In this document: in pieces, positions 12,710 through 45,398 of the stretch
How the letters are laid out: each line of letters starts with the position of its first letter
Numbering within the stretch: position 1 is the stretch's first letter
NCBI GenBank assembly: GCA_947644195.1
Contig: CANRZB010000030.1
Coordinates: 1-45,398, forward strand
DNA: 45,398 nucleotides
Reading direction: 5' to 3'
From: an uncultured Clostridium sp.
GTDB lineage: Bacteria; Bacillota; Clostridia; Lachnospirales; Lachnospiraceae
Made by a program: the position numbers and the translations under genes
Notes under the pieces: model-generated
What the model was told of the DNA's origin: nothing
Databases searched by the model: none
Seen by the model: only the letters and a program-made list of their open reading frames with translations

Positions 12710-13882
12710 ATGGACGGAACGTCGATCTACATGGATCATGGCGCTACTACATCAGTAGAAGCAGAAGTGGTTAAGGCAATGCAGCCATGGTATTCACAAT
12801 GGTATGGGAATCCATCTGGAGTATACGAATTCGCAGATAACAGCAAGAAGGCAGTGGAACATGCCAGAGAAGTAATTGCAGAAAGTATTGGAGTGAAGCC
12901 AGAAGAAATATATTTTACCGGAGGAGGAACGGAAGCCGATAACTGGATTTTGAAAGGAATAGTGTTCCGAGATGGTGCGGCTAATACGAAAAAACATATT
13001 ATTACATCAGCAATTGAACATCACGCAGTATTACACAGCTGCCAGTTTTTAGAGCGGATGGGTTGTGACGTGACCTATCTGCCGGTCGATGAAGTGGGAA
13101 TGATTGATGTCCGGGAATTGGAACAGGCGATTCGGCCGGAGACAGTATTAATCAGCATTATGTTTGCAAACAATGAAATTGGTACGATAGAGCCTGTCCG
13201 TGAAATAGGACAGATTGCACAAAAGTATCAGATCCCATTTCATACAGATGCCGTACAGGCATATCTGCATGTGCCAATCCAGGCAAAAGAGCTGGGGATC
13301 ACAGCGTTAAGTGCGAGCAGCCATAAATTCAACGGGCCCAAGGGAGTCGGTTTTTTATATCTGGAAGAGGGGACAGAACTGGAAGCGTTGCTGCATGGTG
13401 GTGCACAGGAAAAGAGGATGCGTGCCGGGACGGAAAATGTTCCGGGGATCGTTGGCATGGGCAGGGCGGTAGAACTGGGGATGCAGTATATGGAACAGGA
13501 TATGGCATATGTGAGGGAATTACGGGATTATATGCTTTATGAGTTGTTCCGGGAAATTCCTGATCTTTGCTTAAATGGTTCTTCGACCAGGAGATTGCCA
13601 GGAAATATTAATATCAGTCTACAGTATGTAGAGGGAGCGTCACTGCTAGTCTTACTGGATATGGAGGGGATCTGTGCCTCTGCGGGTTCGGCATGTACCG
13701 CCGGAGACCGGGGGATTTCTCATGTTTTACAGGCAATTAGACTGCCGGAGGATCTGGCGAGGGGAACGATTCGTTTTACTCTGGGGCCGGATAATACCAA
13801 AGAAGAGGTAGATCAAGTGGTACGACATATGAAACAATTTGTGCAGGATTTGCGGGGATTTTCAGAGGAGAGCGACTCTTGA
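12710..13882 (+). CDS. Cysteine desulfurase, NifS/IscS family
   Basis: This PLP enzyme removes sulfur from cysteine for iron-sulfur clusters or tRNA thiolation. The ATG at 12710 (390 residues) has GGAAGGAAG upstream and gives the usual IYMDHGATT start; an in-frame ATG at 12593 would add an atypical Arg-rich leader. The PLP lysine is Lys206 in SASSHKFNGPKG, His104 is in AIEHHAVLHS, and the sulfur-accepting Cys329 is in ASAGSACTAGD. The short loop around this Cys places it with group I (IscS/NifS). No IscU or ThiI gene follows, so the sulfur acceptor is unknown. Confidence 0.92.
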   Translation: MDGTSIYMDHGATTSVEAEVVKAMQPWYSQWYGNPSGVYEFADNSKKAVEHAREVIAESIGVKPEEIYFTGGGTEADNWILKGIVFRDGAANTKKHIITSAIEHHAVLHSCQFLERMGCDVTYLPVDEVGMIDVRELEQAIRPETVLISIMFANNEIGTIEPVREIGQIAQKYQIPFHTDAVQAYLHVPIQAKELGITALSASSHKFNGPKGVGFLYLEEGTELEALLHGGAQEKRMRAGTENVPGIVGMGRAVELGMQYMEQDMAYVRELRDYMLYELFREIPDLCLNGSSTRRLPGNINISLQYVEGASLLVLLDMEGICASAGSACTAGDRGISHVLQAIRLPEDLARGTIRFTLGPDNTKEEVDQVVRHMKQFVQDLRGFSEESDS

Positions 13883-29973: not shown

Positions 29974-30609
29974 TTACCGTAAATGCCGATAATAAAATAC
30001 TGCCAGTTGGGTCCGGTCCCGCAGTTCTAGTTTTTCTAGGATCTGGCTGAGATAATTCCTTACCGTGCCCTCACTTAAGTAAAGCGCTTCTGCGATTTCT
30101 TTGTTGTTGCAGCCATCGGCAACCTTTTGAATTAGTTCCAGCTCCTTTTCGGTAATGGGGTACTGGGAGAGATCATGGGTAGGAACGGAATGGATAAAAC
30201 CGGGAAGACGTTCCATAATTTCATCCCCAAATACGGTCTGCCCATTCTGGACAGCAAGTAGGGCAGGCAGGATGCTCTCAAAATTTTGTTTTAATAGATA
30301 GCCTTTCACTCCGATGTGGAGGGCTTTTATAATGTATTCGTCATCGGCAAATGTGGTTAGAAGTAAAATTTTTGCATCAGGGTAATTCTGCAACAGAATT
30401 TTGCCGGCATCCAATCCCGACATGGTTTCCATGCGGATATCCATCAGCAGGATATCCGGTTTCCATGTTTCATACAATTCGATGGCTTCCTTCCCATTGG
30501 TACCGATTCCATGGATCTTGATCTCTCCGCTGGCTTCGAGAATGGTCTTTAGTGACAGGGAAACCAGCTTGTCATCATCTACAATACATAGTGTTATCTT
30601 GTTGCTCAT
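29974..30609 (-). CDS. NarL/LuxR-family response regulator
   Basis: The 211-residue protein starts at 30609 with AAAGGAG upstream. The receiver domain (5-120) has the acidic pocket VDDDK, the phosphorylated Asp57 in LLMDIRM, and Lys in GYLLKQ. The C-terminal helix-turn-helix (about 145-205) reads EKELELIQKVADGCNNKEIAEAL (first part EKELELIQKVADGC) and SEGTVRNYLSQILEKL, typical of the NarL/FixJ group. It is the DNA-binding partner of the kinase encoded 97 bases upstream on the same strand. Targets are unknown, though the divergent giant gene is the obvious candidate. Confidence 0.9.
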   Translation of the reverse strand: MSNKITLCIVDDDKLVSLSLKTILEASGEIKIHGIGTNGKEAIELYETWKPDILLMDIRMETMSGLDAGKILLQNYPDAKILLLTTFADDEYIIKALHIGVKGYLLKQNFESILPALLAVQNGQTVFGDEIMERLPGFIHSVPTHDLSQYPITEKELELIQKVADGCNNKEIAEALYLSEGTVRNYLSQILEKLELRDRTQLAVFYYRHLR

Positions 30610-30706
30610 AAGGGGATCTCCTTTCTTGCAGGATCGCGTTTTTGTCGGTTCTCAGAGGGCATGACCGTATCCTGTTCCGTACCAGTTTCACTACAAAATG
30701 TTGGAT

Positions 30707-31810
30707 TTATTTTATTACCGAAATAAATATTTGAAATCCCTGTTCTGTAGAAAAGTGAATATTTCCGTGGAGTGATTCGACCCGCTCCTGCATACTTGCC
30801 AAACCGATTCCCGTGGAGTGAATTTCTCCGATTTGTGTCCCGTTGTCCTGGATCATCAGTTGAAACATGGCAGGGTGTTCCCGGAGCCGGATCACAACCT
30901 GGTCGGCGTTGCTGTGTCTGGTTACATTTTGTAGGGCTTCCTGGATCACAGCAATAAAGGTATATTGGATTTTTTGTGGGAGAACGCTGTCGATATGGTA
31001 GTCCAGACGGATGTCCAGATCGGGGATGGAGTGTATGATCTCTTCTACGGTATGCTTTAAGTCTACCGTGTCTTGATGCAGATCGTGTACACTGTTGCGG
31101 ATACTGGTCATAGCTGTATTTAGGGTGTGATGTAGTTCCTGGATCGGTTCCATCAAATCGGGGTTCTGGTTGATCACCTGGAGCGCACCGGTCTGTAGAA
31201 TAGACCGGGTCAACATGTGTCCCACATTGTCATGGATATCTCTGGCGATCCGGTTGCGTTCCGCTGCCATAGCGAGCGATATTTCATAATCCTGCTGTAG
31301 GATGAGAGCCTCATTCTTTTGCTTGAGATAGCGTTTTGACTGGGAGCTTTCGTCCTGGTAATTATGATAGGTAATCAGCAATGTATCAATCTGCTGGGTA
31401 TAGTACTGCATCAGAAAGGCTAGGGCAGAAAACAGTAGCAAATTAATCATGATTCTGGATGGATGCTGTGGAATGGATAGCAGAGCGGCAAGTAACAGGA
31501 TTCCCCAATTCATAAACCGTTTCACGTTTCTTGTTGTATAACGGCTGTCTGGTAGGCTGCTGGATTTGCTCGTTTTGGCAACATCATAGACAAATACCGG
31601 AAGAAACAGGGCGAATACTGGATGGCAGATAGCCAGAAAGCTGTAAATAATGAGAATACCGGTATGAATCTGCCAGAGATCCGAATAAGTGATCAGGCAG
31701 GACAAACCAATGGTCAGGCAGCAAGCAGTAATCTGTATGGTATCTGTGGGGATTCCTACCAGGGAAACACAGAGTAAAAATAGTATCAATTTATTTTCTA
31801 ATTCTTTCAT
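30707..31810 (-). CDS. Sensor histidine kinase (NarX/DesK-like)
   Basis: The start at 31810 (MKELENK, 367 residues) is preferred: a longer frame reaches a TTG at 31891, but that codon lies inside the -10 box of the gene's own promoter and so cannot be in the mRNA. About four to five membrane segments (residues 8-135) form the sensor, followed by a coiled coil with YLKQKNEALILQQDYE. The HisKA_3 motif is ERNRIARDIHDNVGHML with the phospho-His193, and the ATPase part has QNVTRHSNADQVVIRL, DNGTQIG and GIGLASMQERV. There is no large outer domain, so the signal is probably at the membrane. Confidence 0.88.
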   Translation of the reverse strand: MKELENKLILFLLCVSLVGIPTDTIQITACCLTIGLSCLITYSDLWQIHTGILIIYSFLAICHPVFALFLPVFVYDVAKTSKSSSLPDSRYTTRNVKRFMNWGILLLAALLSIPQHPSRIMINLLLFSALAFLMQYYTQQIDTLLITYHNYQDESSQSKRYLKQKNEALILQQDYEISLAMAAERNRIARDIHDNVGHMLTRSILQTGALQVINQNPDLMEPIQELHHTLNTAMTSIRNSVHDLHQDTVDLKHTVEEIIHSIPDLDIRLDYHIDSVLPQKIQYTFIAVIQEALQNVTRHSNADQVVIRLREHPAMFQLMIQDNGTQIGEIHSTGIGLASMQERVESLHGNIHFSTEQGFQIFISVIK

Positions 31811-31890
31811 GGTTCTCTCATTTCTGCGGAGTAATGGTTTTGTGCGGAGCCGTTTACCAGTGATCTGGTTGGCGTGATCAAGCTGGCTCA

Positions 31891-31919
31891 ATTATAACGG
31901 ATTGGTACATTCTTGACAA
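31891..31919 (-). promoter_or_regulatory. Promoter of the kinase-regulator pair
   Basis: On the minus strand TTGTCA (31919-31914) and TATAAT (31896-31891) are 17 bases apart. The transcript would begin near 31884 and excludes the upstream TTG as a start codon. The site sits 49 bases from the promoter of the divergent giant gene. Confidence 0.82.
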
Positions 31920-32071: not shown

Positions 32072-35000
32072 ATGAAAAAAATCGGGAAAAAGTGGTATCG
32101 GGCGCTAGCAATGGTTCTTACTATGGTCTTTGTCTTTGAGAGTATTTTTTTAGATGCAAGCTGTCAATGGGCAAAGGCATCCGTGGGGCAAGTGGATCAG
32201 GCAGACAGTGAGCCGGCTCCATCCCATGCTATTACAGCAGATAACAGGACAATTTCTTCCGAGGTAACTTTGTCGGAAGATGTAGAGGTTGGAAGTCTGA
32301 CGATCACTTCAGGGAAATTAGATCTGAATGGGCATAATTTGATTGTGCAGGGCAGTATCCACCATACCGGTGGCATGCTATATGCCAACGGAGGAATGAT
32401 AACCTGCTATGGCGATTACAAGATGACAGGCAGTGCCGTTTATTCTATGAGCAGTCAGGATGATTATTTGTGTATCTATGGTGATTTCCGTTATCTGGGA
32501 GAAAAAGTTCGTGCAACTATTAATGCAGGCGTTATGGAAATCAAGGGGGATTTCTATCAGGATACCGAGAACGCTACTGTCACATCAACAAGTGGAAGAT
32601 TTTATACTTTTGGTACTAGTACCGTCCTTTTCTCAGGAATTTCGAAACAAACCGTTCATATGAATTCCCAGTATTCCTATTTTCAGAAGGTAGTATTAAA
32701 AAATAAAAGTGAAGAGGGCATCTATGCCGATATGATGTTTCCAGTAATTCATCTGGAGCGCAACAGCACAAAAATTACCTGTGGGGCAGATGGTGAAGTA
32801 GGGGGTACATTAAGAGAAGATAGAGAATATGACGGAGATTTTGTCTTACTTGGAGGTACTCTTGATCTCAATGGATATACCCTTACGGTAAATGGAGATT
32901 TTATACAGGCTGCCGGTATGGTTCAGGTAAATGGTGGTACTCTGAAGGTAAACGGAGATTACAGATTACAGAGTAAAATAGCAGAAGATAGCTATGATGC
33001 GTCTTCTGCTGTTTTCATGATGACAAAAGAGGAGGATCAAGTTCACGTAATGGGTAATCTTACCGTAAATTCCTGTATTAGCAATAAAAACATGCTTATG
33101 GACGGTACCTTAGCAGTCGCCGGAGATATTACACAGATACATACAGATGTTTATGATAATTTCGCTATGTCTGGAGATTTCCATCTTGTATTAAATGGAA
33201 CACAGAAACAGGTAATAGATTATGATAGCAATAGTATAGATAGAAATTATATTAATGACATAGAAATTTTGAATATGAAAGGAGCCGAATTTGTATCATC
33301 TGTCTATATAAATGGCCATGTGAATGACCATGGATATTCAATATCAGGCGCTGACCTGTATCCAACTGGCAATGCTACCTTTGAAAACCATAGGATTCAT
33401 GCTAATGTGAGAATATTATATGGTAGTAATTCCTTAGAGGGAGTAAACTATGTTGGTGGCAATTTAACTGTTTTTTCCCAATTTCATTTAAATACTAATT
33501 TAGTCGTGGGTGGGAATCTGAATTGCTGTAGTGATCTGAATTTTCGAGAGTATACCTTGGAGATTCAGGGGAATGTTTCTGTCTCCGGGTTCTGTTATTT
33601 GGAGACAGGAAAACTGGTCTGTCATGGGGATCTGAATCTGTCCTCCAATGGTCATTTGGTAATGCACCATGAGTCAGCTCATGTTCTGGTAAAAAGAAAT
33701 ATGTTTGTCAACAATCACTATGCCTGGGATGAGAGTTATTTATCAGCAGGGATATTAGAAATGCAGGGGAATTTCACGCATACAACACCAATGTATCAAG
33801 GAAATTTTAAGGCAGCAGCCACCCATATTACCCGATTTACCGGAACTGCCAGGCAAATCATTACCTTTGCAGATTCTCATTCTTACTTTGGTACTGTGGA
33901 ATTACAGAATACAAGCCCGGATGGTGTGTATGCACCGATAGGAATCCCTTGTGCTAAACTTCACAAGAATGATACTTCTTATACAACGGACCTAACTGGT
34001 GTCAGTGGATGGATGCTAAAAGAGGATGAGGAATATGCCGGCGATCTGATCCTGGAGGGAGGCGAACTGGATCTGAATGGACATACCCTGACAATTCTTG
34101 GCAATTTGATCCAGCCATCCGGTACAGTTAATGTAAATGGAGGAAAGCTGGTGGTTAAAGGGGATTATCGTATTCAATCAATAGAAGAACAGGAGGGGGA
34201 AGAGGCTATTTATGGAGAAAGTACAGGAAGTTTATATATGACCAAAGAAGAGGATGTGGTCAAAGTAACCGGAGATTTTATTACGTTCTCCACCAGATCT
34301 CATAAAAATAAATTGACAAATGGGTCATTGAAGATTGCCGGGGATCTTATGGTAAATGGTTCTAACCATATTTATAATCTATATTGTTCCAATGAACATA
34401 GGATTGTATTGGATGGAACACAGAAACAGACGGTTCATTGTACAGATGAGATTACGATGAATTTTTGTGTCAATCATCTGGATATTGAAAATGATAGCGA
34501 AGATGGTGTGGTAATTACAGGATTTCTACCCGTATCTGGACATGTACGGGAAAATAGCAGCCGGGTAGCTGGTACTTATTGGATCGCTTCTACTACCACT
34601 TTTGAAGGGAGAAAGACTTCAGCAGGTGTCCGAACCCCTGCCCTATCTGGTCTCAGCAACCTTAATGAGATCGGTGGCAGTCTGATTACGACAGGGAAGC
34701 TGGTTTTAAAAGAGGATTTGATTGTGGGTGGAGATCTCCAGCTCACAGAGGATTATCTGGATGTAAGTGGCAAGACGTTGACTGTCAGGGGAAAAGTAAC
34801 GATTTCAGGTGCCTATCTTTATTTGAATAAAGGAAGCCTTCTTTGTATTGGGGATTTGACGCTGGCATATCGACAGGGGAAGTCCAGTTATCTGTATATG
34901 GCAAGAGAAGAGGATTACGTATGCGTACAGGGGAATATGTCCGTTTCCTCTTTTGGCGGAAACACATCAGAGATGTCCGCCGGAACTTTGGAGTTAAAAG

Positions 35001-38000
35001 GGAATTTTACTCAGACGCGAACCTATGCTGCCGCTAATTTTGTGATGTCAGGAACCAGTCGGGTCCTTTTAAGTGGAGACAGCCTGCAAACCATTTCCTT
35101 TGGCAGCAATGAATCCGCTTTTATGCATACTAGCATTACCAATACTAGTGAAGAAGGGGTGTATTCACCTGCTGGAATCCATGCGCAGACATTACAAATC
35201 AATGGAAATCATTATCGTACCGGCTATAGCGGCAGACAAGGATGGGTATTGTTCCAGGACGAAGTGGTGGAGAGTGATCTTACTTTAAATGGCGGGATTC
35301 TGGATTTGAATGGACATACCCTGACGGTACAGGGAAATTTGATACAAAACGCAGGTGTGGTAAGTATTCATGGAGGAACCTTAGTGGTAGAGGGGGACTA
35401 TCAGGTTGCTTTGTCAGATGGTTCCTGTTCCTGGGCATATCTGGATATGACCAATGAAGATGATAAAGTGGTAGTAGACGGGGATTTTCTGATGGCATCC
35501 CAGGCCGATCATAAGGGAAAATTAAGTGCTGGGATATTGGAAGTGAAGGGTAATGTAACACAACAATGTGGCATGAAGCAGACAAATTTTGCTTCGACGG
35601 GACGTTTTACTCTGGTGATGAGTGGAAGCCAGATACAAAAGATCAGCTTCGTTAAAGCAGAGCTGGATACTTCCTATGTTGCAAATTTGACTTTGAACAA
35701 TTCCAGTGAGAAGGGAGTAATCTTAGATCAGGTTCTGGTGACAGGAAATGTGAGGAGCAATCACGGAAAAATTTCCGGTGTTCTCACGGTGGCAGGAACT
35801 ACGGTGTTTGAAAAGAACGAGTTTGCTGGGGATCTCCATATTGGTAATTCTACTTCTTATTCCAAAGAATTGCACGTAAAAGGGAATCTGTCTGCAAGTG
35901 CGGCATTTATCCTGGGAGCGGATCTGACGGTAGATGGTAATTTTACGACAGAATACACTACAAATTTAAATAACCATACTATGGATGTGGCAGGAAATAT
36001 AATCATTCAAGAAGGTTTTATCACGGTTGGGAAAGGAAAACTGTTGTGTGGAGGCGACCTGGCTGTAAAGGGAAGAGGCTTGTCTATGTCTGACAGTGAA
36101 GGATTTGTGCTGGTATCTGGTAATGTGGAATGGGAGACTGTTTATCAGCCTACTATGACAGCAGGAACACTGGAACTGAAAGGTGATTTTACAGAGAAAC
36201 GGGATTCTAATTATGGAACGATTCAGCAGGCAGTTGCCGCCAAAACAATATTTAGCGGAGAGCAGTTACAGACCGTTACTTTTCATAGTGATAGTGGAAC
36301 CTTTGGCACGGCTGTACTCAATAATACCAGTAAGGATGGGGTTTACTTTAAGGGTAATACGATACGTGCCCTGGCTCTGGAACGAAATGGATGCAAATTG
36401 CACTGTGATTCGGACGGGACATACGGTTGGCAGTTGACCGAAGATGAAGTGATAGAAGAAGATGTTACTTTGATTGCGGATGTATTAGATCTGAACGGTC
36501 ATACGCTGACCGTGAATGGAACGCTGACGATTAGTTCCGGTGCAATCAAGGTTAACGGTGGAACATTGATTGTCAACCGTGACATGAGAATACAGGGAGT
36601 CGATGGACAGGGAGAGTACACTACCAGTTCTGCTTCATTGAATATGACGGATGATAAGGATGTGGTCGTGGTAAAAGGAGATTTTGTCACGGACTCCCTC
36701 CAAAATACGATGGGCCAGTTATCGGCGGGAACGATGGAATTATATGGGGATTTCCGGCAAAAGTCCTCCGGTAATAATGATTATAATTTTGTAGCTTCTG
36801 GCAACCATACTGTAAAATTTCTTGGTAACAAAAGGCAGAAAATCAGCTTTGCAAGTAATTCCTTCAATCATTTTCATCATGTTTCCTTTGAGAACGAGGC
36901 GAAGGAGGTTTCTTTGGAGAGTTATATTGCAGCGACAGGTATGGTAGAGGATCGCGATAAATGTGTGCGGATGGCGGATCGATGTTACCTCATGCTTTCC
37001 AGTTTGAACCAGCTTGCGGATGGTATGTTTGGTGGGGATATTTATTTAAACCGGGATTGTGTATTGACAGGGGATGTGTCCATTGACGGTAAACTGGATA
37101 CAAACAAAGAGATTACATTAGATCATTACTGTTTTTCGGTGGGTAGTTTCTCCCTTTCTTCCCATTTGAATATTGGCTCTGGACAGATGGTTGTTGCAGA
37201 GAACCTGTTGGTTACCACATCTGGTTCTATTGCCATGGATCAGGAGGAAGCTTACTTGTACATCCAGGGAGATTTCACAATGGCTTCCAATGGAAAGAGA
37301 AATGTCTGGACAGCAGGTGTCCTGCAAGTATGTGGAAATCTGTCTGTCACTACTTATGGCGGAGGTTTTATCCTGTCAGGGACCCATAAAACCATATTGA
37401 GTGGTAAACGGAATCACTTTGGCATGGACTACATTCAGAAGGTTTCCTTTAGCCATTCTTCCGCTAAATTTAATGAATTAGTGCTGACTAAAAATCCTAA
37501 TAAATGTTATCTTTTTAATAAGAATGTGCAGGAAATGTGCAATACCTTAACCATAGAGAATACGGATTATGAACCACCGGAAACCGTGGAAGGATTAAAC
37601 GTCCGTAAGACTACTGCTTCCACGGTGTCTTTAGATTGGGATGCATCTACCGATAATGAGGGAGTAGAAGGATATCAGATTTATCGGGGCAGCAGGCTTG
37701 TAGGCAATACCGCTGAAACCTCATTTACTGATACTGGATTGGAGCCGGAGACAGAGTATTCCTATACCGTTTGTGCCTATGACGCTTCGGACAATTATTC
37801 TTCTGTTTCGGATGCTGTCATTGCGATGACGCTTGCAGATCAAAGCGCACCAACCGAACCGAAAGGGATGAAGGTTGCAACGCAGACAGGCAGTTCCATC
37901 ACTATTTCCTGGAATTCCAGCAGGGATGATGTGAAGGTTACTGCATATCGGATATACCGTGATGGTATCTTGCAGGAACAGGTAAAGGCGGTACAAAAAT

Positions 38001-41000
38001 CTTATCAGGATGTAGGACTTAAGGCAGGTGTGTCCTATTCCTATTATGTTACTGCTATGGACGGAGCTGGTAATGAATCGAAGCCAAGCCCTAGTATTGT
38101 AGGGACACCGATGATGCCTGAAATTATAGGAATCTCACCAGAGAATCAAGCAGTGATTGGTGGAGAAAAAATTAATTTATCTTTGTACTACAAGAATGTG
38201 GGTAATAGCAAGGGAAACAAAGTACAGTTTGAATATTCTTTGGATGGGGGAGAGACTTATGAAAAGATTCATTCTAACAAGTTGGGACAGATGATCCAGG
38301 ATTCTCATACCTTATATTCTGGCTGCGCATGGAATATTGGGAACCTGGCAAGTGGAGATTATAGAGTCAGGGCGACCCTGTATGATGCCGACGACCATAC
38401 AGATATCTGTGAGGTAAGCTATCGACTGGATACAGACGGACCTGTTGCACCGGATCGTATAGAAGCGGTGGAGGATAATGGAGTGGTAACTGTTTCCTTT
38501 AGCGAGTCTGATTCTGCCAATTGCAAAAGCTATGAAATCTACCGTGCTGCAGAGGGAGAAGAATATGTGCTGCTGGATACCCTGCTTGGCAGAGACAATA
38601 CGACATATGTTGACCTGGATGTGGAGCAGGGGGAAGTTTATCGCTATTATGTTGTGGGAATAGATCAGTATGGCCAGAGGGGGAATAAGACAAAACAGGT
38701 GGAAGCAATGGTTCATGCAGATAAGACGGCGCCTGTGGTTCATGAGATCATTCCTCTTACGAACAGGATTACAAAGAATAGTGTTGTGACGGTAAAGGCG
38801 GAGGACAACATAGGAGTTACAAAATGTATCCTGCAATATCAGGATGGCGAGAATTGGATTACCGTGGGTGGTACTACGAAAGAAAGTGGATCCGTGGTAG
38901 TTAAGGCAAATCTTCCACAGGATGGGAGCTATTGGTTCCGTGGCGTGGCGTTGGATGCCAACGGCAATCAGGGAATCAGTACTCCGGTCAAAATAGAGGT
39001 GGATGTTACAGGGGTGGCAAAACCTGTCATTCACCAGGTAAGCGCTACGTCCAATTCCGTAAGGATTACATGGAAACAGCCTACAGATGTAGATTTCGAT
39101 TACTATGTGGTGGAGCAATATATTGAAGGATCTTATGAGGAAGTCGCCAGGGAAGGGACTATATTGGGTGTGTATGTAAGAAACTTGAAAAAAAGTTCTT
39201 CCTATCTATTCCGGGTGGTGGGCTATGACGATCTGGGAAATCGAGGGGAGCCATGTGACTCCTTTTCCATCATTACCCAGGAAGATACCACAGAACCTGT
39301 TGTGAAACGATTTGATCCGGTAAAGAATTACTATCAGTCAGAGATTCCTCTTCGTATTCAGGCAGCGGATGACTGTGCCCTGGGTACAATGGTGATTTCC
39401 TATTCCACGGACGGGAAGAACTGGATCAAAGCGGCAAGGCTGTCCGCTCCGGCCAATTCCACATCTTACACTTATACCTATCGTCTGGATATATCTGGCT
39501 TACCGGAGGGTGACGTCTATGTTCATGTGGATTTAAGTGATACAAGCGGCAATACCTATTCCAGGGATGTGACCAGATTATTTTATAAGGATCTTACGGC
39601 GCCCAATCCGCTGACGGAGATTACCGCAACAGGAAAAGATGGAACGATCGAAGTGCAATGGTCTGCAGCAAAGGAAGAGGACTTTGGTTCTTTTGACTTA
39701 TATCGGTTTAATGTTACGACTAATTCTTTTGAATGTATTTGTAAAGCAACTACGGCATTAAATTTTTATGATACCAAGGTAGATCCGGATCATACCTATC
39801 AATATCGGATCGTTGTTAATGATCAGGCAGGTAATTCCAGTGAACCTTCTAAGACCGTGAGGGGGAAGTGTGTAGAAGATACTACTGCACCGAGGGTTTA
39901 TGGTATTTCTCCTGGAAATGGCAAAAAGGTGGGATGCAATGAAACCATTCAGGCATTGGTGGCAGACAATAGGCAGCTTTCCCACATTACCGTTGATTAT
40001 AAAGCCGTGTACAGCGGTGATATCTGGACGGAAGTATATGATGAAAGTGTGCGCTGTGTCGATCGGACGCTTTCCTTTGTGTGGAAGAATGAAGATTTAG
40101 AAAAGGGAGATTATCTGTTTCGGATTACTGCTACAGACGCCAGTGGAAATGTCAGTGATGAATTTACGGCAAGTTATCATTTTGATCCATCCTATGATAC
40201 GGATACAGAAGGCAGCGAACAGGGAGACGGTTCGGAAACTGGAATGACGGATGGGGGCAAACCTTTTACAGTAGTGGCGGACACCACAGCTTTGCAGAGA
40301 GCGGGTAAAGAATATACTTTTGATGCAACGCAATGTGTCAGTGAGATTTCATCCATAGAATCCTATGTTTGGGATTTTGGTGATGGTACCACTGGAAAGG
40401 GAGCGTCTGTAACTCATGTGTATGAATCAACCGGAGACTATATCGTTACATTGACGGTACAGGACCGGAAAGGGAATCGCCAGTCCCAGACAACATCCAT
40501 CCAGGTGGTTTCTAAAAACAGTGGCGGTGTAAATCTGGTTGTGGAAAATGAGTCAGGAGAGAGAATTTCCAATGCCTATGTCCATATATCGGATGCAAAT
40601 GGAAAAGAACTGGTAACTACCAGAACAAATGAAACCGGTCAGCTGGAGGAAGCGTTAGAGACTGGTCGATATCAAGTATCTGCCTATGCCAATGGATACC
40701 TTCCTTCAGACAAGACAGTTAACGTTACCCCTGGAGCGAATAAGAAACTAACTTTGCGCCTGAAAAAGGATGAAGTTGTGGTGGGGACACTATCCCACAG
40801 ACAGCTGGATGTCCGGGAAATGACAGAGTTGGGGATTGATTTGGAGAATGAGGATAACTGGTACACCTACACTTATCAGGTTACTACCTATCGAAATGGA
40901 GAACCTACCGGGGAGGTCTATCAATTCCATGTTAGCAAGGGACAGGTTGCCCATATCAACAGCGGTAATACAGAATTTGCTTATACCTTGGCCTCCGGTA

Positions 41001-44000
41001 CTGGGGGAGAACATGTTCTGGTAGAATATAGAACGGTGCAGTGGTTAAAACAAATGTATGAGGTGGAACTGACCTTGAAGAATCAGGCAGGAGAAGCCTA
41101 CACGGTTACTGACGGTGTGGCTGATTTGATGCTGCCGGAAGGGTTGAGCCTGGCTGCCATGACGGGAGGGAAGGAACAATCTTTATCTGTTCTATTGGAT
41201 GACATACCGGGACAGGGAGAGGAGAGCATATGCTGGTATATCAGAGGCGATATACCGGGAAGCTATTCGATTCAGGCATCCTTTGAGGGAACTTTATTAC
41301 CGTTTCATGCTAACGTCAGCGCTGTGATTTATGATAAAGAGCCTATTGTTGTCACGGAGGAAAATAAGAACAGCAATACGGATCCTTCTTTCCTGGATCC
41401 AGATAAGGAAACCAGGGATTATGTGATTTCGGTATGCAACTATCAGTCAAAAGCTCTGCGAGGTGCTTATGTAGAATTGTCCTACCAGGGGGTATCCACC
41501 AGAGGGATTACGGATAGTGAGGGGCAGGTAGTTCTCCAGGTAAACAAAGACGATGATAGAATGTTTACCTTACATGTTACCTGTGATGGATACCAGAATT
41601 ATGATGACAGCCATTATTGGATCACGGATATTTATCAGGATTATGTGGTTATGCTGGCGGACGGTGGCAGTGTAAGGGACCACTATCGGGATGAGAACAC
41701 AGAGTATCAGGGGAAGTTTGCCCTGGATTACATAACTTTTGACCATACCGATATCTCCAAAACGAAACTTAGTATCAATACTTATAAGCCGAGAACATAC
41801 CCAGTGGAGATGACTTATAGTGAAAATGCCACCAGGGTTTCGATATTGCAGAAAAACAGGCAGGGAGAAGAGATCACGCTGGTGGAAAAGATCATGGATT
41901 CCAACCATGCGGAGTTTACGATTTCTTCCACGGATCTCCAGGCAGACATGGATTTATATGTCAGGGCAAAGGATAAAAAGACAGGTTCCTGGCATCAATA
42001 TCAACTAAAAAGTGTGGAAATTACCTACCAGAGGCCAGCGTTTCATTCGGGGGAGTATGATGAGGATATGGCGGTGCAATGTGCGGAGTATGCTGCATTG
42101 GCATATAAGGGGGAATTTTCTTATGATACATCGACACAGTGTATCTCCGATAAAAAAGATAGTGGGTCAAACAGTAAAAATGTTACCTGTCTGGATTTGA
42201 AACAGAAATTAAAGGCAGATAAATTCTTTGTGGATGATTTATATTATCGGAGAAACCATGGAGATGATAACAGGGACAATTGCACCTATACTATTGCTAG
42301 TAAACCGGACCCCCATGATTACACTTCCTCCTATGTATATGTCATTGTCAGAGGGACGGATTCGGTGGAGTGGTATGGTAATATGGATGTGACGGGAACT
42401 TCTTACGATGCCAACCAGTGGGATCATAAAAGTTTTAAGACCGCAGAGGAGGGTGTATATCGGCTGCTGCAGGTGTATTTAAGCCAATATCATATTGATA
42501 ATGCCAAGATAGTGGTTACGGGGCATAGCAGGGGAGCAGCGGTATCGAACCTTTTGGCGAAGGATTTAATTGACAATCAAGAAACCTTGGGCTTGGATTC
42601 TGTCTGTGCCTATACCTTTGCCACGCCTACCGTGACTCTGAAAAAGGATGTGGATCTAGACAAATATTCTTCCATCTATAATTTCTGTTTTACCGATGAT
42701 TTTGTCCCACAGCTTCCTCTGGAAGAGTGGGGTTATGGAAAGTACGGTACTACCGTGATTGCAGATTCCCAGGATTTGAGTTGGACGAATGAAGAATACA
42801 ATCAGATGAGGCATTTGATTCGCCATGGAGGAGAAATTAAATATAATTCCGCAGGAACTACTAAGATGATTCAGCATGTCGCTAAAAATTGGGATAATGT
42901 TGAGGAGTATTATAATGATTATAGGCTTTGGTCAGGTATTCATGCTGCGGATCACAATGAATTTAAGACCTTATATGAGGTTATGCATGATTATGTTGCA
43001 GCGGCTGCTGCTAAGGTTGGGTATACAATTCATGGGATTAATTGGCAGGGGATAGTTATGGCAACGGAAATGGTTGCAGTCCTTAGCCCATATCGATGCT
43101 TGTGTGATTATTTTGTAAAGGGAAATTTGGATCTAAAAGGTAATGGGAAGGGCTCATTATTTGACACCCATCATATTGACAATTATTATGCCGCCCTGCG
43201 AACGAAAGGCTTTGAAACCAGAATGTTATCCTCGCATCATAATACCCGGAAAAAAGCAGCAGCTACTAGCTGGGAGGGAGTTGTGCTGGATGACAATGTG
43301 ATGAAGCAGTCTCCGAATATTCAGCAGTTCCGGAATTTCTTAAACCGAAGGACGAGCACTTATGCGGAAGATGGAAGTCAGGAAGTAATAAGCTATGGTG
43401 AGATTTATGGCTGGGATCCGGACGATGCCAATACCTGGTCCAGCGTTCGCTTTGATGAGGAGGGAAATATTACGGCGATTGACCTGCCGTTGTATTCCGT
43501 GGAGGGGGTACTGGATCTGTCCGGTTTCCATAAACTGCAATCTCTGTGCTGCATGTATACGGATCTGGTATCTATTCAATTGACCGGATGTGAGGCATTA
43601 GAAGAATTGGTCGTGCCATATAATCAATTGAAGATGTTGAATCTCAGTGATTGTGATCAGCTGGTTACCGTGGATGTGACGGGGAATGAATTATTTAATA
43701 TTGTGGTGGACAGCTACGATGCTATCCAGGTTTTCCGTTGTGAGTACAATTACCTGGATGTGTATCACAATGAGAATATGAAGAAAATAGTGGAATCCGT
43801 GTCTGGACAGGTAACCTATTGTCACCAGAATCCCATTGAGAATGCCGTATATAATGAGACCGACCTGGCATGTCTCCAGGGATTCTTAAATCAGGCCGGC
43901 AATGCAGAAGTATTGGGGTGGGATGTGAATAACCGTAGTACCTGGGAAGGGGTTACCTGGGCTTACCATGGCGGCACCAACCGGATTACTGCCCTGGATA

Positions 44001-45398
44001 TCGGAGAAGCTGCGGTTGCAGGCAGCCTGGACTTGAGGAAATTAAGCTACTTACAGGAACTGACTTGTGACAATACTCAATTGGCCGATTTGGATATCCG
44101 TGGCTTGAAATACCTGACCCAAGTATCTGCTGATTGCTGTCAGTTGGAGGATCTGCGCATGTCTGGCAATGATGCGCTCCGGTATTTGGATTGCCTGCAT
44201 AACTATCTGGACGTGGATGATATGGGGGATGCCTGCCAGGAGATAGCGGCAAGGGATGGTGCTATTGTGCAGTATGAGGATCAATATATTGCAGCAGGCA
44301 GGGAGGCATTTCATGCCGTAGAACTGAAGGTTCTGGCGACAATGGACCGGGATCAGGAACAGATTGCCTGGGATCTGAACCGCCCTGGCAGTATTCCGGG
44401 GATTACCTGGACAGTGGCAGAGGGAAAATATCGGGTGCAGGCCATCAACTTATCCGGGTACATGTTGGAGGGAGATTTGGATTTCAGTGTCTTTGCCTGC
44501 CTGCAAGATTTTAATGTTGCCACCACCGGGATAGAGCGTGTGACACTGCCGGATCATTTGCGCTCTATTCCAAAGGGTGCCTTTGTTTCCTGCTATCATC
44601 TGGAATCCATTACCATTCCTGCCCAGGTAACTGTTCTGAGGAAAGATGCTTTTTACAATTGCATGAATTTGAAAGAGCTGATCTTTGCCGGAAATGCACC
44701 AGAGCAAATCGGGGAGGATATCCTGGAAAGTACGGATGAGGATTTGACAGTTTATTATTACCGTGGCACCACCGGTTGGGATGCGTCCTACTGGTCTCAG
44801 TACCGATTGTCAGAGATCAGCCGGGAGGAGGTTACGCCAAGTGTTCCTCCGGCTGAAACGGAGATACCTTCCGTAACAAACCCGCCAATGGTAACCGGGA
44901 AGCCTGGCTCATCTCCTTCAGCGACAAATCAGCCGATAGTAACCGGGGCACCAGGTGTATCTCCGAACGTGACCGATACGCCTTTGAGAACGAAAGAGCC
45001 AGATGTTTCGCCGTCCGTAACAGTAATACCAACAGAGCAGCCGGTTGCCACGGGGAAACCAGCACCGATACCAAGTGAGACCGTGAAACCGACGGATCCA
45101 CCGGGGGCTATTGGGAGAGCGACATCATTACCGATCATAACCCAGGCACCATCGGGAAAAAATCCTTCTGTTACCGAACAGAAGAAAGTGAAGGTAAAAC
45201 CCACAAAGATTAAAAAAGTAAAACGAACCAAGAAAAAATTACATATTACTTTAAAGAGGGTTCGTGGAGTGTCTGGCTATGTGGTTTACATCAAAAAAGG
45301 GAAGAGGGGAACATATAGAAAAATCTGGGTTCGGTCCTGGAAAAAGGACAGGATTACCATTCGTAAGCTGAAATCCCGAAAGAGATATACGGTGAAAG
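32072..45398 (+). CDS. Giant multi-domain surface protein, 3' end outside window
   Basis: One frame stays open from ATG 32072 to the last base, at least 4442 residues. GGAGG six bases upstream decides the start. A signal peptide ends near AKA (34-36). Residues about 53-1835 are four and a half copies of a roughly 400-residue repeat (LDLNGHTLTV, VNGG, KGDF, SGxxxQxIxF, GVY, GW). Then come fibronectin type III and Ig-like modules (about 1836-2703), a PKD-like domain (2729-2815, YVWDFGDGTTG), CarboxypepD_reg/CnaB-like domains (2817-2902, 3118-3197), a lipase-like domain (about 3320-3650; Ser3486 in GHSRG, Asp3542/3543, His3624 or 3628), leucine-rich repeats (3770-4067), BspA-type repeats (4143-4234), a Pro/Thr stalk (4254-4370) and a Lys-rich end. 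Probably a wall-attached adhesin with hydrolase activity. Attachment is not visible. Confidence 0.9.
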   Translation, partial: MKKIGKKWYRALAMVLTMVFVFESIFLDASCQWAKASVGQVDQADSEPAPSHAITADNRTISSEVTLSEDVEVGSLTITSGKLDLNGHNLIVQGSIHHTGGMLYANGGMITCYGDYKMTGSAVYSMSSQDDYLCIYGDFRYLGEKVRATINAGVMEIKGDFYQDTENATVTSTSGRFYTFGTSTVLFSGISKQTVHMNSQYSYFQKVVLKNKSEEGIYADMMFPVIHLERNSTKITCGADGEVGGTLREDREYDGDFVLLGGTLDLNGYTLTVNGDFIQAAGMVQVNGGTLKVNGDYRLQSKIAEDSYDASSAVFMMTKEEDQVHVMGNLTVNSCISNKNMLMDGTLAVAGDITQIHTDVYDNFAMSGDFHLVLNGTQKQVIDYDSNSIDRNYINDIEILNMKGAEFVSSVYINGHVNDHGYSISGADLYPTGNATFENHRIHANVRILYGSNSLEGVNYVGGNLTVFSQFHLNTNLVVGGNLNCCSDLNFREYTLEIQGNVSVSGFCYLETGKLVCHGDLNLSSNGHLVMHHESAHVLVKRNMFVNNHYAWDESYLSAGILEMQGNFTHTTPMYQGNFKAAATHITRFTGTARQIITFADSHSYFGTVELQNTSPDGVYAPIGIPCAKLHKNDTSYTTDLTGVSGWMLKEDEEYAGDLILEGGELDLNGHTLTILGNLIQPSGTVNVNGGKLVVKGDYRIQSIEEQEGEEAIYGESTGSLYMTKEEDVVKVTGDFITFSTRSHKNKLTNGSLKIAGDLMVNGSNHIYNLYCSNEHRIVLDGTQKQTVHCTDEITMNFCVNHLDIENDSEDGVVITGFLPVSGHVRENSSRVAGTYWIASTTTFEGRKTSAGVRTPALSGLSNLNEIGGSLITTGKLVLKEDLIVGGDLQLTEDYLDVSGKTLTVRGKVTISGAYLYLNKGSLLCIGDLTLAYRQGKSSYLYMAREEDYVCVQGNMSVSSFGGNTSEMSAGTLELKGNFTQTRTYAAANFVMSGTSRVLLSGDSLQTISFGSNESAFMHTSITNTSEEGVYSPAGIHAQTLQINGNHYRTGYSGRQGWVLFQDEVVESDLTLNGGILDLNGHTLTVQGNLIQNAGVVSIHGGTLVVEGDYQVALSDGSCSWAYLDMTNEDDKVVVDGDFLMASQADHKGKLSAGILEVKGNVTQQCGMKQTNFASTGRFTLVMSGSQIQKISFVKAELDTSYVANLTLNNSSEKGVILDQVLVTGNVRSNHGKISGVLTVAGTTVFEKNEFAGDLHIGNSTSYSKELHVKGNLSASAAFILGADLTVDGNFTTEYTTNLNNHTMDVAGNIIIQEGFITVGKGKLLCGGDLAVKGRGLSMSDSEGFVLVSGNVEWETVYQPTMTAGTLELKGDFTEKRDSNYGTIQQAVAAKTIFSGEQLQTVTFHSDSGTFGTAVLNNTSKDGVYFKGNTIRALALERNGCKLHCDSDGTYGWQLTEDEVIEEDVTLIADVLDLNGHTLTVNGTLTISSGAIKVNGGTLIVNRDMRIQGVDGQGEYTTSSASLNMTDDKDVVVVKGDFVTDSLQNTMGQLSAGTMELYGDFRQKSSGNNDYNFVASGNHTVKFLGNKRQKISFASNSFNHFHHVSFENEAKEVSLESYIAATGMVEDRDKCVRMADRCYLMLSSLNQLADGMFGGDIYLNRDCVLTGDVSIDGKLDTNKEITLDHYCFSVGSFSLSSHLNIGSGQMVVAENLLVTTSGSIAMDQEEAYLYIQGDFTMASNGKRNVWTAGVLQVCGNLSVTTYGGGFILSGTHKTILSGKRNHFGMDYIQKVSFSHSSAKFNELVLTKNPNKCYLFNKNVQEMCNTLTIENTDYEPPETVEGLNVRKTTASTVSLDWDASTDNEGVEGYQIYRGSRLVGNTAETSFTDTGLEPETEYSYTVCAYDASDNYSSVSDAVIAMTLADQSAPTEPKGMKVATQTGSSITISWNSSRDDVKVTAYRIYRDGILQEQVKAVQKSYQDVGLKAGVSYSYYVTAMDGAGNESKPSPSIVGTPMMPEIIGISPENQAVIGGEKINLSLYYKNVGNSKGNKVQFEYSLDGGETYEKIHSNKLGQMIQDSHTLYSGCAWNIGNLASGDYRVRATLYDADDHTDICEVSYRLDTDGPVAPDRIEAVEDNGVVTVSFSESDSANCKSYEIYRAAEGEEYVLLDTLLGRDNTTYVDLDVEQGEVYRYYVVGIDQYGQRGNKTKQVEAMVHADKTAPVVHEIIPLTNRITKNSVVTVKAEDNIGVTKCILQYQDGENWITVGGTTKESGSVVVKANLPQDGSYWFRGVALDANGNQGISTPVKIEVDVTGVAKPVIHQVSATSNSVRITWKQPTDVDFDYYVVEQYIEGSYEEVAREGTILGVYVRNLKKSSSYLFRVVGYDDLGNRGEPCDSFSIITQEDTTEPVVKRFDPVKNYYQSEIPLRIQAADDCALGTMVISYSTDGKNWIKAARLSAPANSTSYTYTYRLDISGLPEGDVYVHVDLSDTSGNTYSRDVTRLFYKDLTAPNPLTEITATGKDGTIEVQWSAAKEEDFGSFDLYRFNVTTNSFECICKATTALNFYDTKVDPDHTYQYRIVVNDQAGNSSEPSKTVRGKCVEDTTAPRVYGISPGNGKKVGCNETIQALVADNRQLSHITVDYKAVYSGDIWTEVYDESVRCVDRTLSFVWKNEDLEKGDYLFRITATDASGNVSDEFTASYHFDPSYDTDTEGSEQGDGSETGMTDGGKPFTVVADTTALQRAGKEYTFDATQCVSEISSIESYVWDFGDGTTGKGASVTHVYESTGDYIVTLTVQDRKGNRQSQTTSIQVVSKNSGGVNLVVENESGERISNAYVHISDANGKELVTTRTNETGQLEEALETGRYQVSAYANGYLPSDKTVNVTPGANKKLTLRLKKDEVVVGTLSHRQLDVREMTELGIDLENEDNWYTYTYQVTTYRNGEPTGEVYQFHVSKGQVAHINSGNTEFAYTLASGTGGEHVLVEYRTVQWLKQMYEVELTLKNQAGEAYTVTDGVADLMLPEGLSLAAMTGGKEQSLSVLLDDIPGQGEESICWYIRGDIPGSYSIQASFEGTLLPFHANVSAVIYDKEPIVVTEENKNSNTDPSFLDPDKETRDYVISVCNYQSKALRGAYVELSYQGVSTRGITDSEGQVVLQVNKDDDRMFTLHVTCDGYQNYDDSHYWITDIYQDYVVMLADGGSVRDHYRDENTEYQGKFALDYITFDHTDISKTKLSINTYKPRTYPVEMTYSENATRVSILQKNRQGEEITLVEKIMDSNHAEFTISSTDLQADMDLYVRAKDKKTGSWHQYQLKSVEITYQRPAFHSGEYDEDMAVQCAEYAALAYKGEFSYDTSTQCISDKKDSGSNSKNVTCLDLKQKLKADKFFVDDLYYRRNHGDDNRDNCTYTIASKPDPHDYTSSYVYVIVRGTDSVEWYGNMDVTGTSYDANQWDHKSFKTAEEGVYRLLQVYLSQYHIDNAKIVVTGHSRGAAVSNLLAKDLIDNQETLGLDSVCAYTFATPTVTLKKDVDLDKYSSIYNFCFTDDFVPQLPLEEWGYGKYGTTVIADSQDLSWTNEEYNQMRHLIRHGGEIKYNSAGTTKMIQHVAKNWDNVEEYYNDYRLWSGIHAADHNEFKTLYEVMHDYVAAAAAKVGYTIHGINWQGIVMATEMVAVLSPYRCLCDYFVKGNLDLKGNGKGSLFDTHHIDNYYAALRTKGFETRMLSSHHNTRKKAAATSWEGVVLDDNVMKQSPNIQQFRNFLNRRTSTYAEDGSQEVISYGEIYGWDPDDANTWSSVRFDEEGNITAIDLPLYSVEGVLDLSGFHKLQSLCCMYTDLVSIQLTGCEALEELVVPYNQLKMLNLSDCDQLVTVDVTGNELFNIVVDSYDAIQVFRCEYNYLDVYHNENMKKIVESVSGQVTYCHQNPIENAVYNETDLACLQGFLNQAGNAEVLGWDVNNRSTWEGVTWAYHGGTNRITALDIGEAAVAGSLDLRKLSYLQELTCDNTQLADLDIRGLKYLTQVSADCCQLEDLRMSGNDALRYLDCLHNYLDVDDMGDACQEIAARDGAIVQYEDQYIAAGREAFHAVELKVLATMDRDQEQIAWDLNRPGSIPGITWTVAEGKYRVQAINLSGYMLEGDLDFSVFACLQDFNVATTGIERVTLPDHLRSIPKGAFVSCYHLESITIPAQVTVLRKDAFYNCMNLKELIFAGNAPEQIGEDILESTDEDLTVYYYRGTTGWDASYWSQYRLSEISREEVTPSVPPAETEIPSVTNPPMVTGKPGSSPSATNQPIVTGAPGVSPNVTDTPLRTKEPDVSPSVTVIPTEQPVATGKPAPIPSETVKPTDPPGAIGRATSLPIITQAPSGKNPSVTEQKKVKVKPTKIKKVKRTKKKLHITLKRVRGVSGYVVYIKKGKRGTYRKIWVRSWKKDRITIRKLKSRKRYTVK
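32230..37560 (+). repeat. Four and a half ~400-residue protein repeats
   Basis: Each repeat has two related halves. One half begins GWxLxEDE and holds LDLNGHTLTVxGNLIQ, VNGGxLxVxGDY and an SGxxxQxI motif. The other begins with a V..G.V strand and holds weaker versions of the same motifs before GVY and a new GW. The GW marks fall at 34007, 35240 and 36425, with an equivalent near 32804, so the period is about 1200 bases. The copies have diverged strongly in DNA but keep the protein pattern. The first unit (32230-32800) is a half. I do not recognise a named domain. Confidence 0.8.

What the first reader, a model, noticed from the sequence alone, without database searches (positions are those of the whole stretch)
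32072..45398. Giant secreted protein with an unnamed ~400-residue repeat
A single open frame exceeds 13 kb. Its first 1800 residues consist of four and a half two-part repeats with regular strand motifs (LDLNGHTLTV, VNGG, VKGDF, SGxxxQxIxF). The pattern suggests a long right-handed beta-solenoid or stacked beta fibre carrying the functional domains outward. I know of no named domain with this motif set, so it may be an undescribed repeat family.
Basis: partly seen in the sequence, partly recalled or inferred. Interest (0 to 1): 0.8.

Follow-up and report, generated by a model that had tools for sequence, protein, structure and literature searches.

The report
Stalk of giant bacterial toxin-like proteins
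The repeat is a conserved nine-unit beta-rich stalk, without a match above cut-off in the domain libraries searched, that forms the front of giant secreted proteins in gut bacteria; most relatives whose rear ends could be read look like weapons against other bacteria, and this one carries a lipase instead.

Summary
The frame from 32072 is open to the contig end (4442 aa); residues about 60-1838 are nine homologous units of about 200 aa alternating between two types, that is, four and a half two-part repeats. No Pfam or NCBIfam model reaches its cut-off there. AlphaFold2 predicts a confident all-beta fold (pLDDT 92.5). The same stalk heads giant secreted proteins in scattered Lachnospiraceae and other Clostridia; 13 share exactly this nine-unit order, with position-specific first and last units. 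Of 36 stalk proteins whose rear parts were read, 32 continue into Rhs/YD repeats, and some Rhs ends carry pretoxin-HINT, AHH nuclease, deaminase or RES domains: polymorphic-toxin architecture. The window protein shares the chassis (Fn3, PKD, carboxypeptidase-regulatory, a Pfam-less domain) but lacks Rhs: it has a class 3 lipase with an intact Ser-Asp-His triad, then BspA-type LRRs. A contig sharing the terminal 55 bases ends the frame 25 residues later and then encodes four tandem paralogous membrane proteins. Best reading: an exchangeable-warhead stalk protein, here possibly an antibacterial lipase with membrane immunity. Activity, immunity and delivery are inferred, not shown; only 3 of 10 such lipase genes have a membrane gene behind them.

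The parts
32072..32179 (+). Sec-type signal peptide (residues 1-36, by eye)
   Evidence: Lysine-rich start and hydrophobic stretch; KD 12-mer maximum 2.7. No signal-peptide program was run.
32249..32800 (+). Unit 1 (B type, N-terminal unit of the array)
   Evidence: unit 1 best matches unit 1 in 13 of 13 nine-unit proteins
32801..33391 (+). Unit 2 (A type)
33392..34009 (+). Unit 3 (B type)
34010..34612 (+). Unit 4 (A type)
   Evidence: AlphaFold2 model of units 4-7
34613..35242 (+). Unit 5 (B type)
35243..35806 (+). Unit 6 (A type)
35807..36427 (+). Unit 7 (B type)
36428..37006 (+). Unit 8 (A type)
37007..37585 (+). Unit 9 (B type, divergent C-terminal unit of the array)
   Evidence: unit 9 best matches unit 9 in 13 of 13 nine-unit proteins
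37586..40261 (+). Fn3 and Ig-like tandem
   Evidence: Pfam fn3 E 2.4e-25, 4 stretches, best 1929-2009; Big_13 below its cut-off
40277..40507 (+). PKD domain
   Evidence: Pfam PKD_4 E 7.6e-18
40535..40765 (+). Carboxypeptidase-regulatory-like domain
   Evidence: Pfam CarboxypepD_reg E 1.2e-9
40760..41368 (+). Conserved domain of about 210 aa before the effector region, no Pfam family
   Evidence: in 44 of 77 unit-bearing ORFs of L029-L101 at >=80% coverage (many of the others are cut short); Pfam 1 of 45 members, weakly; beta-rich AF2 model
42347..42724 (+). Class 3 lipase core; likely catalytic Ser codon 42527, Asp codon 42695 or 42698, His codon 43169 (the last lies behind the Pfam stretch)
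   Evidence: Pfam Lipase_3 E 3.4e-13; alignment of 8 lipases; coordinates
44528..44722 (+). BspA-type leucine-rich repeats
   Evidence: Pfam LRR_5 E 2.4e-11
44834..45187 (+). Pro/Thr-rich linker (approximate limits)
   Evidence: sequence
45188..45398 (+). C-terminal Fn3-like domain, cut by the contig end
   Evidence: residues 4373-4442; contig C78 shares the last 55 bases and ends the frame 25 residues on. The Fn3-like label is by eye.

Best explanation
The repeat array is a fixed-size, nine-unit beta-solenoid stalk, the N-terminal chassis of a family of giant Sec-exported proteins of Lachnospiraceae and other Clostridia. The stalk plus Fn3/PKD/carboxypeptidase-regulatory spacers would span the thick wall and hold an exchangeable C-terminal module away from the cell. 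In most relatives read that module is an Rhs shell with a variable end; in the window protein it is a class 3 lipase followed by LRRs. Most likely mechanism: on contact the lipase attacks membrane phospholipids of neighbouring bacteria, and the tandem membrane proteins encoded just behind the gene protect the producer. Shown here: the units, their conservation, the shared chassis, the Rhs and toxin-like ends of relatives, the lipase triad, the tandem paralogs. Predicted only: the solenoid fold. Inferred: wall spanning, display, lipase activity, target, immunity.
For: Nine units, z 5.6-48.5. Same unit in 73 loci. Same domain order in relatives. Rhs in 34 of 39 rear parts fetched; of the 39, 36 belong to stalk proteins and 32 of these 36 have Rhs (one of the 36, L119, is tied only by frame length). 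In 19 post-core segments, 17 of them from stalk proteins, Pfam finds PT-HINT in 6, AHH in 2, a YwqJ-type deaminase in 1, RES in 1 and NCBIfam SitA6 polymorphic toxin in 2. Own genome: divergent unit-bearing proteins with EndoU (E 3.6e-11) and a sub-threshold YwqJ-type deaminase. AF2 pLDDT 92.5. Lipase_3 E 3.4e-13, triad invariant in 8 aligned lipases. Four tandem membrane paralogs, 39-49% identical, behind the gene on C78, with no match in 298 other sampled family genomes. Lipase locus L155 is followed by tandem duplicated membrane-protein pairs and L158 by an overlapping membrane protein. Precedents: TslA, an antibacterial phospholipase A with tandem tilA immunity genes (PMC10730906, abstract and passages); TsaI, a polytopic membrane immunity protein in multiple copies (PMC9484751, passages); polyimmunity loci (PMC3482391, passages).
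Against: The window protein has no Rhs and no C-terminal toxin: its lipase is internal and its C-terminus is Fn3-like. No lipase was seen inside another stalk protein: in 50 genomes the 9 other lipase proteins lie on contigs other than those of the stalk genes known to me. Only 3 of 10 lipase genes (counting the window's via C78) have a membrane-protein gene directly behind them on the same strand. Chassis proteins without units exist too (L118, L130, L135). Gut bacteria also secrete nutritional lipases. The C78 link is a 55-base overlap, not a proven join. No base rate for tandem membrane paralogs was measured.
Confidence: 0.48

Rival explanations
1. The stalk is as described, but this member is an adhesive or nutritional surface enzyme: LRRs, Fn3 and PKD bind host mucus or feed particles and the lipase releases fatty acids. 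It reuses the chassis of toxin relatives but is not a weapon; the tandem membrane genes are unrelated neighbours.
For: BspA-type LRR_5; other stalk proteins without Rhs end in LRR_5 (L110, L129, L131) or SLH (L119) and show no toxin domain in Pfam at E<=0.01; the closest lipase elsewhere sits with LRRs on a secreted protein whose N-terminal part looks like RCC1 repeats, with what looks like a sigma factor gene behind it (both by eye); 7 of 10 lipase genes lack a membrane gene behind them.
Against: The tandem paralogous membrane array directly behind the gene and its apparent restriction to this genome; the dominance of Rhs and toxin-like ends on the same chassis.
Confidence: 0.37
2. The protein is a former Rhs toxin that lost Rhs and toxin by recombination and now carries passenger domains, with no dedicated function of the lipase.
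For: Same chassis order up to the point where relatives begin Rhs.
Against: A 4442-codon frame with no stop and an intact triad argue against decay.
Confidence: 0.08
3. The repeats are only a composition-driven beta-rich array like many unrelated adhesins; the apparent family is convergence.
For: Weak matches to bactofilin, LptA and haemagglutinin repeats; in one divergent relative (G003) a stretch of 29 residues matches the NCBIfam filamentous-haemagglutinin repeat TIGR01731 above its cut-off, 22.2 against 18 bits.
Against: 0 of 812 reversed ORFs at E<=1e-10; position-specific best matches of unit 1 and unit 9 in 13 of 13; linked downstream domains.
Confidence: 0.03

Closest known systems
WapA / Rhs polymorphic toxins of Gram-positive bacteria
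   Same: Sec-type signal, giant size, conserved front and variable rear; relatives of the window protein carry DUF6531, Rhs repeats, Rhs core and toxin-like ends.
   Different: S. suis WapA has a DNRLRE and LysM wall-binding front (PMC12704120, passages); here the front is the nine-unit stalk plus Fn3/PKD, and the window member has no Rhs.
TslA/TilA phospholipase toxin of Staphylococcus aureus
   Same: A lipase with tandem paralogous (candidate) immunity genes nearby (PMC10730906, abstract and passages).
   Different: TslA is type VII-secreted with an LXG-like C-terminal domain; the window protein has a Sec-type signal and a stalk, and the candidate immunity proteins are multi-span membrane proteins rather than lipoproteins.
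CdiA / FHA-type beta-helical stalks (comparison recalled)
   Same: Works like it: a long repetitive beta stalk at the front, toxin at the end; Foldseek weakly lists the haemagglutinin-like adhesin EtpA; one divergent relative (G003) has a TIGR01731 repeat match above cut-off.
   Different: No haemagglutinin-repeat match is listed for the window protein and 1 to 2 of 141 units match such Pfam models weakly; different phylum.
Class 3 lipases (PF01764)
   Same: Pfam match above cut-off and catalytic triad.
   Different: Internal in a stalk protein of more than 4400 residues.
BspA-type LRR surface proteins (PF13306)
   Same: LRR_5 near the C-terminus.
   Different: The LRRs make up a small part; the stalk and lipase are extra.

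Membership tests
Rhs / WapA polymorphic toxin | Sec signal and conserved N-terminal chassis shared by proteins with different C-termini | tested here: met
   the signal peptide was judged by hydropathy and eye only
Rhs / WapA polymorphic toxin | RHS/YD repeats and Rhs core | tested here: not met
   none listed by Pfam or NCBIfam for the window protein, though 32 of 36 stalk relatives with a rear part read have Rhs
Rhs / WapA polymorphic toxin | variable toxin domain at the C-terminus | tested here: not met
   C-terminus is Fn3-like and ends on C78, if C78 is the neighbour; the lipase is internal
Rhs / WapA polymorphic toxin | immunity gene directly downstream | tested here: inconclusive
   four tandem membrane paralogs on C78; no Pfam family above cut-off
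Class 3 lipase | PF01764 above gathering score | tested here: met
   50.1 bits against a cut-off of 22
Class 3 lipase | Ser-Asp-His triad | tested here: met
   invariant in the 8 lipases aligned; the 8 were picked by the GHSRG motif out of 10, so Ser is invariant by choice
TslA-type lipase toxin | LXG-like helical domain, type VII secretion | tested here: not met
   no such Pfam match listed; Sec-type N-terminus by eye
Filamentous-haemagglutinin / CdiA stalk | haemagglutinin repeats above cut-off | tested here: not met
   none listed for the window protein; weak in single units of 141. Against this: the divergent G003 relative matches TIGR01731 above cut-off over 29 residues
Bactofilin | PF04519 above gathering score | tested here: not met
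   not listed for the window protein; 6 of 141 units at E<=0.01, best 1.3e-4; relative C39 21.1 against 27.9 bits
Parallel beta-solenoid fold | stacked short strands along the whole array | tested here: inconclusive
   AlphaFold2 gives regular short strands over 806 aa, pLDDT 92.5, and weak beta-helix neighbours; coordinates not inspected
Parallel beta-solenoid fold | right-handed coil | not testable with these tools

The most novel reading that the evidence does not exclude
An undescribed class of Gram-positive contact weapon: a fixed-length nine-unit beta-solenoid stalk with distinct first and last units acts as a ruler across the thick wall and carries swappable warheads, mostly Rhs-caged toxins but here a class 3 phospholipase working outside the cage. 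The warhead's site of action sets the immunity type: soluble paralog arrays behind the EndoU-bearing protein, membrane-protein arrays behind the lipase protein.
Probability: 0.33. Interest if true: 0.78.

Novelty: new variant of a known kind. Interest (0 to 1): 0.6.

Why it matters
Rhs toxins of Gram-positive bacteria need some way past a thick wall, and how WapA proteins pass it is stated to be unresolved (PMC12704120, passages). A conserved stalk, often of constant unit number, in front of many Rhs toxin-like proteins of gut and rumen Clostridia offers a testable answer. It also gives a name-ready domain family covering about 1800 residues that Pfam and NCBIfam leave blank here, marks toxin-like genes in genomes where the front is unannotated, and points to a lipase-armed member with candidate membrane immunity.

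Tried and rejected
Known family: Pfam and NCBIfam on the whole protein, Pfam on 141 units, PDB sequence searches with one repeat, a 71-row and a 141-row profile: sub-threshold or weak matches to assorted solenoids (best 5t5i_C, E 1e-5, 27 bits). Foldseek against PDB found nothing at E<=0.001, and against viral models 7 matches at E<=0.001 with TM 0.07-0.17. Viral origin: 0 of 56 pattern stretches in viral contigs encode a relative. Four-unit profile searches split into fragments, so units were typed one by one. Idea that the C-terminus holds an unread toxin: rejected as far as C78 is the true neighbour. Idea that every lipase relative has membrane immunity behind it: not supported (3 of 10). 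Idea that every chassis protein has the stalk: not supported; 3 of 39 fetched (L118, L130, L135) show no units in the upstream stretch fetched, one of them cut by its contig end. Paper searches; none of the listed titles and abstract beginnings pointed to this repeat, but the lists are partial (one search showed 12 of 30, 6 of 12, 8 of 26). Within Zhang 2012 (PMC3482391, first 300,000 of 357,715 characters held) the terms beta-helix, FN3, Lachnospira and Ruminococcus gave 0 hits.

Full report
Observation. The window is the whole contig G000:C30. From 32072 a frame of 4442 codons runs off the contig end. Residues 60-1818, cut into nine segments, align pairwise with z 5.6-48.5 against shuffles in all 36 pairs; the ninth unit extends to about residue 1838. 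Units alternate between types A and B, unit 1 being B type. A unit profile (A1, 21 units, themselves among the sequences searched) finds 85 of 812 ORFs (at least 120 aa, loci L023-L101 plus the window) at E<=1e-10 and 0 of the same 812 reversed; at E<=1e-3 it is 88 against 4.

No named domain. For the whole protein Pfam gives fn3, PKD, CarboxypepD_reg, Lipase_3 and LRR_5 above cut-off, with best stretches all after residue 1818 (25 of 26 listed families were shown, and only best stretches); none of the 8 NCBIfam rows is above cut-off. Of 141 single units scanned, the most frequent Pfam family at E<=0.01 matches 7 (pAdhesive_15), then bactofilin 6; the lowest E is 2e-5 for a beta-galactosidase domain in 3 units; the window unit that heads the alignment matches none (that tally does not show gathering scores). 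Against this, a 29-residue stretch of the divergent G003 relative matches the NCBIfam haemagglutinin repeat TIGR01731 above its cut-off (22.2 against 18 bits). PDB sequence searches give weak solenoid matches.

Fold. AlphaFold2 on units 4-7 (806 aa, 71-row alignment A6) gives mean pLDDT 92.5, pTM 0.78, and strands only, apart from a three-residue helix at two places. Foldseek against PDB: 69 matches at E<=10, none at E<=0.001, best Ag43, then the S-layer protein RsaA; TM-scores in the 50 listed rows are at most 0.33. I could not inspect coordinates, so solenoid topology rests on the strand pattern and these weak neighbours, and handedness is untested.

Distribution. A genome scan with six A-type units confirmed 144 of 540 pattern stretches; the best 80 gave 73 loci, nearly all labelled Lachnospiraceae, Oscillospiraceae/Ruminococcus or other Clostridia, with two records labelled Thermoflexaceae and single ones labelled Desulfuromonas, Electrothrix and Alistipes. 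In sampled genomes, 13 of 299 of the window's family and 3 of 398 of the phylum have a match at E<=1e-12, the window's own genome included in both; with a single repeat at E<=0.001, 4 of 61 relatives including itself.

A fixed nine-unit array. Typing units with A and B profiles built from the window gives the pattern B-A-B-A-B-A-B-A-B in 13 of the 51 long ORFs listed, the window's included; several others differ by one or two typed pieces. Among these 13, chosen for that pattern, the best match of a unit in other proteins has the same position in 81 of 117 cases; unit 1 matches unit 1 and unit 9 matches unit 9 in 13 of 13 each. The 117 of 117 agreement in type is partly built in, since types were assigned by profile. 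Other members differ, for example an all-A array of 14 in Herbivorax and shorter arrays elsewhere.

What follows the stalk. Many relatives share the order Fn3s, PKD, carboxypeptidase-regulatory domain and then a domain of about 210 aa, the last found at >=80% coverage in 44 of 77 unit-bearing ORFs of L029-L101 (many others are cut short), with no Pfam match except one weak one in 45 members and a beta-rich model, pLDDT 79.7, whose Foldseek neighbours are complement C3/C4 pieces and a TRAP subunit. I fetched rear parts for 39 chassis places of those listed; not all listed places were taken (for instance G083:C63, G066:C55, G068:C112 and G072:C72 were not). Of the 39, 34 show Rhs by comparison with the G036 protein, whose own Pfam scan gives RHS_repeat at E 6.8e-122, DUF6531 and a sub-threshold ParB_N end and the Rhs core in NCBIfam.

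Check of that count. The 39 were picked by the chassis, not the stalk, so I tied each to units: 33 share sequence with a unit-bearing ORF, L113 and L143 show units upstream in the same frame, and L119 lies in the 6151-codon frame of the Herbivorax stalk ORF. These are 36 stalk proteins: 32 with Rhs, three ending in LRR_5 (L110, L129, L131) and one in SLH domains (L119). The other three (L118, L135 with Rhs; L130 with SLH) showed no units in the upstream stretch fetched, L135 being cut by its contig end. For the 19 that show the Rhs core and end at a stop, 17 of them stalk proteins, Pfam finds PT-HINT in 6, AHH in 2, DUF2380 in 2, YwqJ-type deaminase in 1 and RES in 1; NCBIfam names 2 as SitA6 polymorphic toxins. 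The tallies do not say which members match; the first member matched nothing.

Own genome. Divergent units occur in three more proteins: C54 ends in EndoU (E 3.6e-11), C81 in a sub-threshold YwqJ-type deaminase, C39 has a CBM_2 front and an end without a Pfam match above cut-off. In the same genus, G003 has a unit-bearing protein whose end matches a Doc model just under its cut-off. Behind C54 lie several similar soluble small proteins, and behind the G003 gene a run of similar soluble small proteins (similarity judged by eye, solubility by hydropathy), as polyimmunity loci would look (PMC3482391, passages).

The window protein's own module. After the chassis comes a class 3 lipase. Ten lipase-like proteins were found counting the window's, in 9 of 50 genomes. 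Eight with a GHSRG motif were aligned; Asp and His of the triad are invariant as well as the Ser used to pick them; the two without the motif (in L160, L161) were dropped. The nine others lie on contigs other than the stalk genes known to me. The closest, in G083, is a secreted protein with an RCC1-like front (by eye), the lipase and LRRs.

Behind the gene. Contig C78 (4908 bases) ends with the same 55 bases as the window, the pattern of two neighbouring contigs of one assembly graph. Read alone, its frame stops after 25 further residues. Behind it on the same strand lie four tandem paralogs of about 150 aa, two of them in one ORF, 39-49% identical to each other, with hydropathy-predicted membrane spans, no Pfam match above cut-off and no match in 298 other sampled genomes of the family. 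Fast-evolving small membrane proteins are easily missed by such a search. Of the ten lipase genes, three (window via C78, L155, L158) have a membrane-protein gene directly behind on the same strand, seven do not.

Interpretation. What is firm: a repeat family without a curated model here that forms the N-terminal chassis of giant secreted proteins, most of which, where the rear could be read, are Rhs polymorphic-toxin-like. What is likely but predicted: a beta-solenoid stalk. What is inferred: that it spans the wall and displays the module, that the window lipase is an antibacterial phospholipase and that the tandem membrane proteins are its immunity. TslA shows that a lipase toxin with tandem immunity genes exists in Gram-positive bacteria (PMC10730906, abstract and passages), and TsaI shows multi-copy polytopic membrane immunity (PMC9484751, passages). 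The window protein itself fails two defining features of Rhs toxins, so I do not file it as one; it shares their chassis and may work like them.

Organism. G179 and G263, counted as the window's family, show the same contig numbers and ORF lengths as the genomes of loci L055 (Anaerosacchariphilus) and L070 (Anaerosporobacter), so the family is probably Lachnospiraceae; this is inference.

Noticed in passing
window 29974-31891: A histidine kinase and a LuxR-type response regulator are encoded divergently just upstream of the giant gene, a possible regulator; GGDEF and EAL genes lie further up.
   Followed up: no
window 40760-41368: A conserved domain of about 210 aa without Pfam family, found ahead of the effector part in 44 of 77 unit-bearing ORFs of L029-L101.
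   Followed up: partly
L025: In a species of the same genus, a second piece of stalk unit (8733-9164) and a small ORF resembling the pre-toxin region (13203-13427) lie behind the stalk toxin-like gene among runs of similar small proteins, as orphan toxin/immunity cassettes would.
   Followed up: no
L030, L034, L046, L097: The stalk gene is split into two neighbouring ORFs, by sequence error or gene decay; left as found.
   Followed up: no
L119, L130: The Herbivorax stalk protein ends in three S-layer SLH domains, so the same stalk can be anchored at its C-terminus; an Acetivibrio chassis protein also ends in SLH but shows no units upstream.
   Followed up: partly
L164-L166: Chassis proteins with Rhs or SLH ends but without stalk units in the upstream stretch fetched: the chassis can carry other fronts.
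   Followed up: no
L155-L162, L107: Secreted class 3 lipases of Lachnospiraceae and relatives with fronts that look by eye like CBM2, Ca-binding or RCC1 repeats, an apparently little-described group.
   Followed up: partly
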